Positions 36,184 to 42,121 of a stretch of DNA of 64,000 bases are shown here, in pieces (within the stretch, counting starts at the first letter, position 1; each line of letters begins with the position of its first letter). The position numbers and the translations under genes were made by a program. Origin of the DNA: Agromyces larvae (lineage in GTDB: Bacteria > Actinomycetota > Actinomycetes > Actinomycetales > Microbacteriaceae); NCBI RefSeq assembly GCF_022811705.1, contig NZ_CP094528.1, positions 3,720,001-3,784,000 of the forward strand, read 5' to 3'. The notes under the pieces were generated by a model. It was not told where the DNA came from and searched no databases. It worked only from the letters and a program-made list of their open reading frames with translations.

Positions 36184-36246
36184 TCTGTGGAACGACGGCG
36201 GAGCCGATGCGCCTGGGGAGGAGAACTCCCACCCCCTGCACACCGT

Positions 36247-36309
36247 TCCCCGCACGCAACCCCCCGCGCGCAATTCCCCGTACGCAATGCCCCGTACGCA
36301 ATTCCCCGT
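36247..36309. repeat. Tandem 14-bp degenerate half-ends of the 83-bp repeat
   Basis: Four to five tandem units of CCCCGTACGCAATT (with GCACGC, GCGCGC variants) lead into copy C. They look like an expansion of the element's left terminus. Confidence 0.75.
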
Positions 36310-36392
36310 ACGCAATTCAGGTTCGCACTCGGCGTGTCGCGTGGCGGCTCGGCGTGTCGATGCCGCGACACGCCTCCGCTCCTGAATTGCGT
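36310..36392. repeat. 83-bp palindromic repeat, copy C
   Basis: ACGCAATTCAGG at 36310 and CCTGAATTGCGT ending at 36392. The interior carries GGCGTGTCG twice and CGACACGCC once. Lies between the DUF559 gene start and the ABC exporter gene, followed by (ACGC)n to about 36418. Confidence 0.88.
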
Positions 36393-36418
36393 TCACGCAC
36401 GCACGCACGCACGCACGC

Positions 36419-36456
36419 GGGCGGGCGGGCGGGTGGGCAGGCGGGTGGGTGGGGGG
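36419..36456 (+). repeat. G-quadruplex-capable GGG tract array
   Basis: Eight runs of at least three G separated mostly by one base (36419-36456), directly upstream of the ABC exporter's TAGGGT -10. Enough for two intramolecular G-quadruplexes on the coding strand. Confidence 0.7.
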
Positions 36457-36463
36457 TGCGGCG

Positions 36464-38504: not shown

Positions 38505-40697
38505 ATGGAAGACCAGCTCGCGCCCGCCACGGGTGCCGCACCGGCGGTCGAGGCATCCGCTCCGCCTGCGGCGACGTCTGCTCGCCGGCGCCGTCGGGGC
38601 ATCAGCATCCAGTCGAAGCTGCTCGTCATCCTGTTGGCGACCAGCCTGCTGTCGGCGCTCGTCGTCGGCGTCATCGGCTGGATCAGCGGCCGCGACTCGT
38701 TGCGGGCCGCCGCGTACGACGAGCTGACCACGATCCGCGAGTTCCGCAGCGCGGAACTGCGGCGCACCCTGCGCGACTTCGAGGCGGGCGTCCGGGTGGC
38801 CGCGGCGAACGCCAGCGCCGAGATCGCGTCGGTCGAGTTCAACGGCGCGTTCGCCGACCTCGAGCAGACCGAGATCTCGGAGGCCGACGCGCAGCGGCTG
38901 CTCGACTGGTACCAGACCTCGTTCGTGCCGAAGCTCGAGGAGCGATCGGACGACACGTTCGACGCGCGCACCCTGATCCCGTCGAGCCCCGCGGGGCAGT
39001 ACCTGCAGTTGCGGTACACCGTCCCGACCGATCCGTACGAAGACCAGACGGTCGCCACCGCCGTCGAGGACGCGGGCGACGGCAGCGCCTGGTCGGCGGT
39101 GCACGCTCGGTTCCACGACTACTTCACGCGGCTCGTCGACAACTTCGGGTACGTCGACGTGCTGCTCATCGACGATCGCGGCCGGGTGGTGTACACGGTC
39201 GACAAGGGCATCGACCTCGGCACCGACCTGCAGAGCGGGCCGTTCGAGCGCACCGCGCTCGCCGACGCGTATCGCGACGCGCTGCGGTCGGGCAGCACTA
39301 CGACGGTCGCGACGACCGACTTCGAACCCTATGTGCCGTCGCTCGACGTGCCCACCGCGTGGGCGGTGTCCCCGGTGGGCGACGCGGGGGACATCACGGG
39401 GGCGCTCGCCGTGCAGGTGCCGATCGCGACGATCGACGACGTCATGACCGGCGACGAGGGCTGGCAGCAGCAGGGGCTCGGCGAGACCGGGGAGGTGTAC
39501 CTCGTCGGCGCGGACGGGTTGATGCGCTCGAACTCGCGGCCGCTCATCGAGGATCCCGGCACGTACGCCGAACGGGTCATCGACCGCGGTACGCCGCCGC
39601 GCGTCGCCGAGCGGGTCGTCGCGGCGGGCAGCACCGTGCTGCTGCAGCCGGCGTCGTCGCCCGCGGTCGCTGCGGCGCTGGCCGGCGGCACCGGCGTCAT
39701 GTCGAGCCAGGAGTACATCGGCGGCACGAGCCTCGTCGCGTACGCGCCGTTCGACGCGGCCGACGTCGAGTGGGTGATGGTGGCGCGCATGGAGGCGAGC
39801 GAGGCCTTCGCGCCGGTCGACGACTTCACCCGCACCCTGGTGCTCACCACGCTCGGCATCATGCTCGTCGTGAGCCTGCTCGCGCTGCTGCTCGCGCAGG
39901 CGTTCACCCGGCCCATCCGCCGGCTCGGCGACGCCGTGCACCGCGTCGCCGCGGGAGATCTGGACGTGCGGGTGCAGTCGAACACGCGCGACGAGTTCGG
40001 CGACCTCGGTTCGGCGTTCAACGACATGGCGAAGAGCCTGCGCGTGAAGCAGGAGCTCATCGAGCAGCAGAAGGCCGACTACGACAAGCTGCTGCTCACG
40101 CTCATGCCCGCGTCGGTCGCGCAGCGGTATCGCAAGGGCGAGGATGCGATCGCCGAAGAGCACCAGGATGTCTCGGTGGTGTACGCGGAGCTCGTCGGCT
40201 GGGACGACTTCGCCGACGCCCTGGGCGGCGAGGCCGGCGTGTCGCGACTCGACGAACTGGTGCGCAGCTTCGACGAGGCGGCCGAGCGCATCGGCGTCGA
40301 GAAGGTCCGCCCGCTGCGGGAGGGGTACCTCGCGAGCTCGGGACTCATGGTGCCGCGCATCGACAACGTGCGCCGGGCCGTCGACTTCGCGGTCGAATTG
40401 CACGACGTCGTCGAGCGGTTCGACGCGCAGAACGACGCGAAGCTCGCGATGCGCACCGGGATCGCGACGGGCACGGTGACGGCGGGCCTCGTCGGGCGGA
40501 CCAGCCTCGCCTACGACCTGTGGGGTGCCGCGGTGAACCTCGCGCACCGGGTGCAGGCGGTCACCGGGGAGCCGGGCATCTTCGTGAGCCAGGGCGTGCG
40601 CGACGGCGTCGGGGATGCGATGCGGTTCGAGCAGGTCGGCACGGTCGATGCGAAGGACGGGCAGCAGGCGGTCTGGAAGGTCGTGCGGGAGACCTGA
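38505..40697 (+). CDS. Membrane receptor with dCACHE-like sensor, HAMP and class III cyclase-like domain
   Basis: A 730-residue protein. TM1 (~38-60), a ~380-residue extracytoplasmic Cache-like region (VDVLLIDDRGRVVYTVDKGIDLGTDL, GETGEVYLVGADGLMRSNSR), TM2 (~443-466), HAMP (RPIRRLGDAVHRVAAGDLDVRV) and a cyclase homology domain (~530-725). The domain keeps GIATGTVTAGLVG and the VNLAHR Asn/Arg pair, but both metal Asp positions are Glu (VVYAELVGW, REGYLASSGL), the substrate Lys is Arg (EKVRPL) and the base-selecting Asp/Thr are Ala (YDLWGAAVN). It may be catalytically altered or inactive. Two bases upstream of the CNBD-MscS channel gene. Confidence 0.83.
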   Translation: MEDQLAPATGAAPAVEASAPPAATSARRRRRGISIQSKLLVILLATSLLSALVVGVIGWISGRDSLRAAAYDELTTIREFRSAELRRTLRDFEAGVRVAAANASAEIASVEFNGAFADLEQTEISEADAQRLLDWYQTSFVPKLEERSDDTFDARTLIPSSPAGQYLQLRYTVPTDPYEDQTVATAVEDAGDGSAWSAVHARFHDYFTRLVDNFGYVDVLLIDDRGRVVYTVDKGIDLGTDLQSGPFERTALADAYRDALRSGSTTTVATTDFEPYVPSLDVPTAWAVSPVGDAGDITGALAVQVPIATIDDVMTGDEGWQQQGLGETGEVYLVGADGLMRSNSRPLIEDPGTYAERVIDRGTPPRVAERVVAAGSTVLLQPASSPAVAAALAGGTGVMSSQEYIGGTSLVAYAPFDAADVEWVMVARMEASEAFAPVDDFTRTLVLTTLGIMLVVSLLALLLAQAFTRPIRRLGDAVHRVAAGDLDVRVQSNTRDEFGDLGSAFNDMAKSLRVKQELIEQQKADYDKLLLTLMPASVAQRYRKGEDAIAEEHQDVSVVYAELVGWDDFADALGGEAGVSRLDELVRSFDEAAERIGVEKVRPLREGYLASSGLMVPRIDNVRRAVDFAVELHDVVERFDAQNDAKLAMRTGIATGTVTAGLVGRTSLAYDLWGAAVNLAHRVQAVTGEPGIFVSQGVRDGVGDAMRFEQVGTVDAKDGQQAVWKVVRET

Positions 40698-40699
40698 GC

Positions 40700-42121
40700 A
40701 TGGACGCGGGCATGGACACGGGCTGGGTGATCTGGGCGATCGCGATCGCGGTCGGGATCCCGCTCGTGCTCGTGGTGCTCACCGAGGTGCTCGCGGCGCT
40801 GACGCGGCGCGGCAATCCGGCCGCGGGGCCCGTGCGGTTCCTGCGGAACTGGGTGGTGCCCGTCGCCGCGGTGCTCGTGTTCCTGCTGTTCGCGGTGCAG
40901 CAGCCGACCGAGCAGGTCGGCGTGCGGCTGGTCGCGACGCTGTTCGGGTTCCTGCTGATCCTGCTCGTGCTCGCCGCGTTCAACGTCGCGCTGTTCCAGA
41001 ATGCGCGAGCCGGCACGTGGCGCGATCGCATCCCGAACATCTTCGTGTCGATCGTGCGGGTGCTGCTCATCCTCGTCGGCCTCGCGCTGATCTTCTCGTG
41101 GGTGTGGGGCGCCGACGTCGGCGGGTTCTTCACCGCGCTCGGCGTGACCTCGATCGTGATCGGCCTGGCGCTGCAGAACGCGGTGGGCAGCGTCATCTCG
41201 GGGCTGCTGCTGCTGTTCGAGCAGCCGTTCAAGATCGGCGACTGGCTCGACACCGGCGATGTGCGCGGGCGGGTGATCGACGTGAACTGGCGCGCGGTGC
41301 ACATCGAGACGCCGTCGGGCACGCGCATCGTGCCGAACGCCTCGCTCGCGGGCGGTTCGTTCACGAACCTCAGCCGGCCGGCGAACGGGTATCACGTGTC
41401 GGTCGACGCGACGTTCGGCACCGATGACGCGCCGTTCGACGTGATGGCGATGCTGGCCGAGGTGGCCGGTTCGCTGCCGATGCTCGCGCCCGGCGGGCGG
41501 CCGGTCGCGCGGTACAACGGGCAGAGCGCGTACACCGTCGATCTGCCGTTGCGCAGCCCGGCGGTGGCGGCCGAGGCGAAGGGGATGCTCCTCGCATGGC
41601 TCTGGTACGCCGCCCGCCGCCGCGGGCTCGCACTCGACGGCGACGCGACCGACCCGGTCGCCGATCCCGCGCGCCTGCGGGCGGCGGTCGAGCAGGTGGC
41701 GCCGCTGCTGCACCTCGACGGCCCGGCGATCGAGGCGGTGCTCGCCGACTCGCACCTCGAGCAGTACGGCGTCGGCGAGACCGTGCAGCGGGTGGGTGTC
41801 GTGCCCCGGCACCTGCGGGTCGTGATCGAGGGGCGCATGCAGCTCTGGGCGATGGCGGGCGACCAGCGGATCGACATCGCCGCGGCCGATGCGGGGGAGT
41901 ACGTCGGGCACACGTCCCTCACCCGGGAGGCCGCGTTCGTGGGCGCGACGGCGCTCGCCGTCACGACCGTGCTCGTCATCCCGCGGGCGACGCTCGACGC
42001 GCTGGTGCGCACGCACCCCGAGATCGCGCGCAGCATCGGCCGGGTGGTGGAGAAGAAGCGGCGCCTGGTCGAGCAGGCGGTCGCGACGGCGGGCGTCGCG
42101 AGCGGCAGCCTGCTGCGGTGA
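40700..42121 (+). CDS. MscS-like channel with C-terminal cyclic-nucleotide-binding-like domain
   Basis: A 473-residue membrane protein. Four to five N-terminal helices lead to the MscS pore and beta domain (GGFFTALGVTSIVIGLALQNAVGSVISGLLLLFEQPFKIGDWLDTGDVRGRV, NASLAGGSFTNLSRP). Residues ~330-450 resemble a cyclic-nucleotide-binding domain (LEQYGVGETVQRVGVVPRHLRVVIEGRMQLW, DAGEYVGHTSLTREAAFVGATALA). The phosphate-binding cassette has His where FGE has Glu and lacks the usual PR-x-A Arg. Such bCNG-type channels respond to ligand more than tension. Coupled to the receptor gene immediately upstream; together they look like a signal-to-channel unit. Confidence 0.83.
   Translation: MDAGMDTGWVIWAIAIAVGIPLVLVVLTEVLAALTRRGNPAAGPVRFLRNWVVPVAAVLVFLLFAVQQPTEQVGVRLVATLFGFLLILLVLAAFNVALFQNARAGTWRDRIPNIFVSIVRVLLILVGLALIFSWVWGADVGGFFTALGVTSIVIGLALQNAVGSVISGLLLLFEQPFKIGDWLDTGDVRGRVIDVNWRAVHIETPSGTRIVPNASLAGGSFTNLSRPANGYHVSVDATFGTDDAPFDVMAMLAEVAGSLPMLAPGGRPVARYNGQSAYTVDLPLRSPAVAAEAKGMLLAWLWYAARRRGLALDGDATDPVADPARLRAAVEQVAPLLHLDGPAIEAVLADSHLEQYGVGETVQRVGVVPRHLRVVIEGRMQLWAMAGDQRIDIAAADAGEYVGHTSLTREAAFVGATALAVTTVLVIPRATLDALVRTHPEIARSIGRVVEKKRRLVEQAVATAGVASGSLLR

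What the first reader, a model, noticed from the sequence alone, without database searches (positions are those of the whole stretch)
38505..42121. Receptor/cyclase-like gene paired with a CNBD-like MscS channel, both missing canonical residues
The two genes are 2 bp apart. The cyclase domain has both metal Asp changed to Glu, Lys to Arg and the base-selecting pair to Ala, while Asn/Arg for transition-state binding remain. The channel's nucleotide domain lacks the usual Glu and Arg of the phosphate-binding cassette. Correlated loss suggests the pair uses a different nucleotide, or that the cyclase-like domain now signals by contact. The architecture (external sensor, HAMP, signal domain, gated channel) would convert an external cue directly into ion or osmolyte flux.
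Basis: partly seen in the sequence, partly recalled or inferred. Interest (0 to 1): 0.75.

Follow-up and report, generated by a model that had tools for sequence, protein, structure and literature searches.

The report
Sensor-channel pair without cyclic-nucleotide chemistry
Many actinobacteria encode, side by side, an outside-facing sensor and a membrane channel that look like a cyclic-nucleotide maker and its receptor but have both lost the residues needed to make or bind cyclic nucleotides, so the sensor may open the channel by touching it.

Summary
The window encodes a double-Cache/HAMP/class-III-cyclase-like receptor (38505-40697) and, 2 nt on, an MscS channel ending in a cyclic-nucleotide-binding (CNB) fold (40700-42121). 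Both metal Asp are Glu and the base Lys is Arg, but the base-selecting Asp is intact. The loss is conserved, not decay: the receptor sits beside the channel in 73 of 73 orthologous loci and in all 22 channel-bearing genomes of 149 from the family; none of 242 receptor domains (overlapping sets) keeps five of six catalytic residues, whereas 25 of 25 unpaired class III domains of two other genomes keep both metal Asp. The cassette Glu is kept in 0 of 120 paired channels and in 120 of 120 ordinary MscS-CNB channels. A deep sister clade has receptor-channel-receptor operons with different losses. In the window's genome this is the only class III domain found. The lost residues serve every 3',5'-cyclic nucleotide whatever its base, so a merely different base is unlikely. 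Direct contact gating, a split ligand-gated channel, fits best but is unproven; a private non-cyclic ligand is the main rival. The mycobacterial pair Rv2435c/Rv2434c probably belongs here (recalled).

The parts
38505..40697 (+). Receptor gene: membrane helix, external double-Cache sensor, second membrane helix, HAMP, linker helix, cyclase-like domain (730 aa)
   Evidence: membrane helices read from the model and sequence
38700..39812 (+). External double-Cache sensor (about residues 66-436)
39888..40043 (+). HAMP domain (residues 462-513)
   Evidence: PF00672 E 2e-17
40152..40655 (+). Class-III-cyclase-like domain (residues 550-717), catalytic set incomplete
   Evidence: PF00211 E 2.4e-27; residues
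40188..40190 (+). E562 in place of metal Asp1
40308..40322 (+). R602 (base Lys), R605 (Gly) and E606 (metal Asp2)
40515..40550 (+). D671 (base Asp, kept), A675, N678 and R682 (transition-state pair, kept)
40700..42121 (+). Channel gene: MscS-type pore and C-terminal CNB fold (473 aa)
41180..41377 (+). MscS beta domain (residues 161-226)
   Evidence: PF00924 E 1.2e-19; MscS 2vv5 Foldseek E 2e-12
41762..42016 (+). CNB domain core (residues 355-439)
41906..41935 (+). Altered phosphate-binding cassette (residues 403-412): His for Glu, Ala for Arg, one residue shorter, with the family's invariant Thr408-Arg409

Best explanation
A conserved receptor-channel module. The external double-Cache sensor binds an unknown ligand; the signal passes through HAMP and the linker helix into a cyclase-like dimer that no longer cyclises nucleotides (a pseudocyclase). 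Its change of shape is passed to the CNB-fold domains below the MscS pore by direct protein contact and opens or closes the pore. It is thus a split, ligand-gated MscS channel without a cyclic-nucleotide messenger. Shown: two adjacent genes, their predicted folds, constant pairing, conserved loss of catalytic and cyclic-nucleotide-binding residues. Inferred: no catalysis, no cNMP binding, physical contact, ligand gating, ion or osmolyte flux.
For: Adjacency in 73 of 73 orthologous loci and in 22 of 22 channel-bearing genomes of 149; no third shared gene (none outside the pair in more than 22 of 73 loci). None of 242 receptor domains in overlapping sets keeps five of six catalytic residues; 25 of 25 unpaired class III domains in two other genomes keep both metal Asp. 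Cassette Glu 0 of 120 against 120 of 120, and Arg 0 of 120 against 119 of 120, in ordinary MscS-CNB channels. The deep clade lost different catalytic residues yet keeps the operon, as receptor-channel-receptor in 14 of the 15 loci where both sides can be seen. Both folds remain intact in the models. The only class III domain found in the window's genome.
Against: No contact was tested; complexes could not be predicted. In the Actinomycetia clade both altered pockets stay tightly conserved (R602 and D671 in 120 of 120, T408-R409 in 120 of 120), which also fits a ligand. A homodimeric or heterodimeric receptor must meet a channel that is presumably a heptamer like MscS, an unsolved symmetry mismatch. 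The window protein keeps a carboxylate at both metal positions and the Asn/Arg pair.
Confidence: 0.48

Rival explanations
1. The pair uses a private small-molecule ligand other than a 3',5'-cyclic mononucleotide: the receptor's altered site makes or binds a nucleotide-like compound and the altered cassette of the channel reads it.
Against: In the deep clade the cassette is not conserved in that form and the receptor's losses differ, although the operon is kept. Mycobacterial members have His or Asn at 602 and Gln at 682. The trypanosome signature (ribose-binding Glu kept) is not present here.
Confidence: 0.27
2. The receptor still makes some cyclic nucleotide with an unusual site (Glu at both metal positions) and the channel binds it weakly, so the pair is an extreme bCNG system.
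For: E562 and E606 could hold metal; base Asp, Asn and Arg are kept in the window protein; it is the only class III domain found in this genome.
Against: Most relatives have Gly at Asp2 (101 of 120), others Asn, Lys, Ser, Thr, Ala or Gln. The cassette residues that hold any cNMP are missing in 120 of 120. Deep-clade receptor A has lost Asp1 in 16 of 16.
Confidence: 0.1
3. The two proteins are co-transcribed but not coupled: the channel is an ordinary tension valve with a relic CNB domain and the receptor signals elsewhere.
For: The MscS part is well conserved. Titles seen only as references say bCNG channels can gate by tension (Malcolm et al. 2012).
Against: Constant adjacency over a patchy distribution (22 of 149 genomes), no third shared gene and strongly conserved cassette and receptor motifs are hard to explain without coupling.
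Confidence: 0.15

Closest known systems
Bacterial cyclic-nucleotide-gated (bCNG) channels of the MscS superfamily (Caldwell et al. 2010, pmid 20529663; Malcolm et al. 2012; seen only as references)
   Same: MscS pore with a C-terminal CNB domain; profile alignment over 441 columns with ordinary MscS-CNB channels
   Different: Cassette Glu and Arg are missing (0 of 120 each); always beside a cyclase-like receptor; forms its own clade against 20 ordinary ones (100/100)
Receptor-type class III nucleotide cyclases (Rv1625c-like, mammalian-type)
   Different: No member examined has a complete active site (0 of 242)
M. tuberculosis Rv2435c/Rv2434c
   Same: Recalled as a cyclase-like receptor beside a MscS-CNB gene; Rv2435c is called mammalian-type (PMC3961136, passage) with a double Cache (PMC4822843, passage); other Mycobacterium species carry clear orthologues of the window pair
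   Different: Sequence orthology not tested here. A 2004 survey (PMC2447327) mentions both genes by the search listing, but only its abstract could be read, so adjacency or residue loss may already be noted there
Pycsar (PycC with PycTM or PycTIR)
   Same: Class III cyclase fold plus a CNB-domain effector, one type of which acts on the membrane; weak PADLOC matches PycC 2.9e-6 and PycTIR-type 7.1e-4
   Different: Pycsar keeps both metal Asp and the CNB Gly-Glu/Arg (PMC11224242, passages); here they are lost, and the cyclase-like protein is a transmembrane receptor
KCNH/EAG potassium channels (recalled)
   Same: A CNB fold in a channel that does not use cyclic nucleotides and makes protein contacts; a functional parallel only
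   Different: Unrelated pore and no cyclase-like partner

Membership tests
Class III nucleotide cyclase (active enzyme) | Cyclase fold | tested here: met
Class III nucleotide cyclase (active enzyme) | Two metal-binding Asp | tested here: not met
   E562 and E606; Asp2 kept in 0 of 120 relatives
Class III nucleotide cyclase (active enzyme) | Base-recognition Lys (or Glu) and Asp (or Cys) | tested here: not met
   Lys is Arg in 120 of 120; the Asp is kept in 120 of 120
Class III nucleotide cyclase (active enzyme) | Transition-state Asn and Arg | tested here: met
   N678, R682 in the window protein; Asn 82 and Arg 114 of 120 in relatives
Class III nucleotide cyclase (active enzyme) | Catalytic activity | not testable with these tools
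   needs an enzyme assay
bCNG channel | MscS pore domain plus C-terminal CNB domain | tested here: met
bCNG channel | Cassette Glu and Arg that hold a cyclic nucleotide | tested here: not met
   0 of 120 for either, against 120 and 119 of 120 in ordinary MscS-CNB channels
bCNG channel | Gating by cyclic nucleotide | not testable with these tools
   needs electrophysiology
Pycsar | Metal Asp pair in the cyclase and Gly-Glu/Arg in the effector CNB domain | tested here: not met
   feature as described in PMC11224242 passages
Pycsar | Defence-island setting | not tested
   neighbours in the window are an ABC transporter and cysteine-pathway genes by reading only
Double-Cache receptor | dCache fold outside the membrane | tested here: met
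Rv2435c/Rv2434c orthologue group | Sequence orthology to the two M. tuberculosis genes | not tested
   those sequences were not fetched; loci of other Mycobacterium and Mycolicibacterium species were

The most novel reading that the evidence does not exclude
A superfamily of bacterial split ligand-gated channels: a Cache receptor whose cyclase domain has become a pure contact output works on a CNB-fold gating ring of an MscS channel, with no second messenger; in the deep clade two different receptors, A and B, form a pseudo-heterodimer around one channel and may integrate two outside cues.
Probability: 0.4. Interest if true: 0.87.

Novelty: new variant of a known kind. Interest (0 to 1): 0.68.

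Why it matters
Few bacterial channels are known to be opened by an outside ligand, and MscS-family channels are thought of as tension valves (general knowledge). If the receptor gates the channel directly, an outside cue becomes ion or osmolyte flux in one step. It would also be a natural case in which a cyclase domain and a CNB domain stayed partners after losing the chemistry that presumably once joined them, in genomes (this one and 20 of 21 others sampled) with no other class III domain found. Annotation pipelines call the receptor an adenylate/guanylate cyclase (names), which is probably wrong and matters for counts of cAMP enzymes in actinobacteria, mycobacteria included.

Tried and rejected
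A first residue tally of unpaired cyclases was discarded because loci of minus-strand matches had not been turned; one search repeats it. Decay of a pseudogene: rejected, frames are open and motifs conserved. A third operon gene: none; no frame outside the pair is shared by more than 22 of 73 loci (an earlier listing was swamped by frames lying over the pair). The window's own neighbours (ABC transporter, cystathionine-beta-synthase-like, cystathionine-gamma-lyase-like, named by reading) have matches in 14, 12 and 12 of 80 loci. A complete A/B active site as in mammalian C1/C2: not found in any locus where both domains could be read; L169 comes nearest, with both metal Asp in B and Lys and Asp in A, but without Asn and Arg. 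Covariation of single replacements between partners: follows lineage. Papers: in what searches listed I saw none that treats the pair as a receptor-channel unit; only top rows with abstract starts were shown and most subscription papers are not held. PMC4886424 (outline and passages) deals with other cyclase-like proteins; 'channel', 'MscS' and 'HAMP' do not occur in it. Rows dropped: L076 (stretch of X) and L039 (contig edge) from the residue tally, L062 and L039 from the pair table; L143, L178 from the tree. Fold searches list the best matches only and exclude nothing.
Full report

Residues. Against the solved domain 7yz9 (named Rv1625c) metal Asp1 is E562, the base Lys is R602, the Gly before Asp2 is R605 and metal Asp2 is E606. 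The base Asp (D671), Asn (N678) and Arg (R682) are present.

Is the loss conserved? In the 120 best receptor relatives listed (of 1284 found, the window's own included) position 562 is E 107, D 12, Q 1; 602 is R in 120; 605 is R 112, H 8; 606 is G 101, E 15, N 2, A 2; 671 is D in 120; 678 is N 82, S 38; 682 is R 114, Q 5, L 1. In the 120 best channel relatives listed (of 2283 found) the cassette Glu position is Q 100, H 19, L 1, and T408 and R409 are invariant. A profile-profile alignment puts the cassette Arg opposite position 412, which is T 79, S 21, A 20. Near it Arg does occur: 46 of 120 at 411, 3 at 413, 5 at 415, so no Arg is strictly conserved there under any register, but another alignment could place some members' Arg at the site. 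In the 71 pairs tabulated from the contig scan the Glu position is Gln, His, Leu or Ala, never Glu. Over five overlapping sets (120 + 71 + 21 + 16 + 14 = 242 domains) none keeps five or six of the six catalytic residues. Both metal Asp stand together only in L092 and L169_B, each of which lacks others.

Controls. In the 120 best relatives listed (of 1141) of an MscS-CNB channel from another bacterium (L078, no cyclase-like neighbour seen in its locus) the cassette Glu is 120 of 120 and the Arg 119 of 120. So the loss marks the pair, not the folds. Whether those 120 control genes have cyclase neighbours was not tested.

Pairing. A scan of genome contigs with the channel gave 80 loci (of 95 confirmed relatives); 73 are orthologous channels, in Microbacteriaceae, Mycobacterium/Mycolicibacterium and other actinobacteria, and 7 are distant MscS proteins. 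A receptor cyclase domain lies directly upstream on the same strand in 72 of 73, and the receptor's C-terminal end is visible in the last one, at a contig edge. In 149 genomes of the window's family the channel occurs in 22, patchily; all 22 have a PF00211 match that ends 36-159 nt before the channel match, and 21 of the 22 have no other PF00211 match. The five PF00211 matches without this channel (G048, G066, G069, G091 and a second one in G123) look like other subfamilies: four gave no BLAST hit to the window's cyclase domain at 1e-3, and one was 26% identical with an Asp at both metal positions. In the window's own genome the receptor holds the only PF00211 match; the only other CNB match lies in a protein that reads like a CNB-thioredoxin-reductase fusion; GGDEF and CYTH gave no match.

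A deep sister clade. A phylum-wide sample (46 of 396 genomes at E <= 1e-20, many of them partial MscS-only matches) and two class-wide samples (2 of 60 and 16 of 295 genomes) gave more distant full-length channels. Fourteen loci show receptor A - channel - receptor B; three are cut by contig ends (L143, L170, L178); one, L179, has receptor A and no receptor in the 2.9 kb after the channel. In L140-L142, where starts were located, the genes overlap by 4 nt or lie 2 nt apart. In L166 both receptor frames are interrupted and were read only as pieces. Of 16 receptor A domains, Lys is kept in 15, Asp2 in 13 and base Asp in 15, but Asp1 in 0, Asn in 0 and Arg in 2; of 14 receptor B domains (one cut by a contig end), Asp1 is kept in 2, Asp2 in 5 and none of the others. 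No A/B combination seen gives a complete site. None of 17 deep-clade channels has the cassette Glu. In a maximum-likelihood tree (midpoint root) the paired channels form one side of a 100/100 branch against 20 other MscS-CNB channels, and L179 groups with the single-receptor Actinomycetia (99/97), although its branch is long and its place therefore unsure.

Mechanism. The residues lost are those that serve any 3',5'-cyclic nucleotide: metal Asp for cyclisation, Glu and Arg for ribose and cyclic phosphate. Pycsar, which uses cUMP or cCMP, keeps the metal Asp pair and Gly-Glu/Arg (PMC11224242, passages). So a change of base is not what the sequence suggests. That two lineages lost different parts of the active site while the receptor-channel operon stayed intact is best explained if the output of the cyclase domain is its shape. 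I therefore favour direct contact gating (0.48). The main rival is a private ligand (0.27), because in the Actinomycetia clade both altered pockets are tightly conserved; trypanosome PKA shows that a CNB fold can swap cAMP for a nucleoside (PMC10959531, passages). Neither was tested physically. The receptor model has low confidence at residues 603-612, the altered Asp2 loop, which is only suggestive.

What is known. bCNG channels (references seen) are the family the channel resembles; it fails their cassette test. Rv2435c/Rv2434c of M. tuberculosis are probably orthologues (recalled, not tested); Rv2435c is described as a mammalian-type cyclase with a double Cache (PMC3961136 and PMC4822843, passages). 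PMC2447327 mentions both genes by the search listing, but only its abstract was readable, so part of this may have been noted there. In what searches listed I saw no paper on the pair as a unit.

Verdict. A real, conserved and, as far as these searches show, under-described receptor-channel module.

Noticed in passing
L002 1309-3054 (own genome, about C1:2073694-2075439): The genome's only other CNB match lies in a protein that reads like a CNB domain fused to a thioredoxin-reductase-like flavoprotein; many family genomes have a CNB match in a frame of about 550-720 aa, perhaps the same fusion.
   Followed up: partly
G069:C2, G123:C1, G066:C2: In three family genomes a class III domain that is not part of this module lies about 1-3 kb from a CNB match in a Crp-sized or similar short frame (248-372 aa), suggesting a separate cyclase-regulator pair.
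   Followed up: no
window 36231-36463: Short tandem repeats (14- and 28-base units with a CCGTACGCAA-like core, then CACG and GCGG runs) just before the ABC transporter gene.
   Followed up: no
L077 577-4050: A Desulfobulbaceae protein that reads like a periplasmic-binding-protein-type sensor fused to an MscS pore and a CNB domain whose cassette Glu and Arg are intact: a one-chain sensor-channel.
   Followed up: no
149 genomes of the window's family: 123 of 149 genomes have no PF00211 match at E <= 1e-5, so class III cyclases look rare in this family.
   Followed up: partly
L166 5397-10947: Both receptors of this deep-clade locus are split into separate open frames, perhaps sequencing errors; read only as pieces.
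   Followed up: no
G447: One genome carries two full-length copies of the channel on different contigs, which could show whether duplicated pairs keep their partners apart.
   Followed up: no
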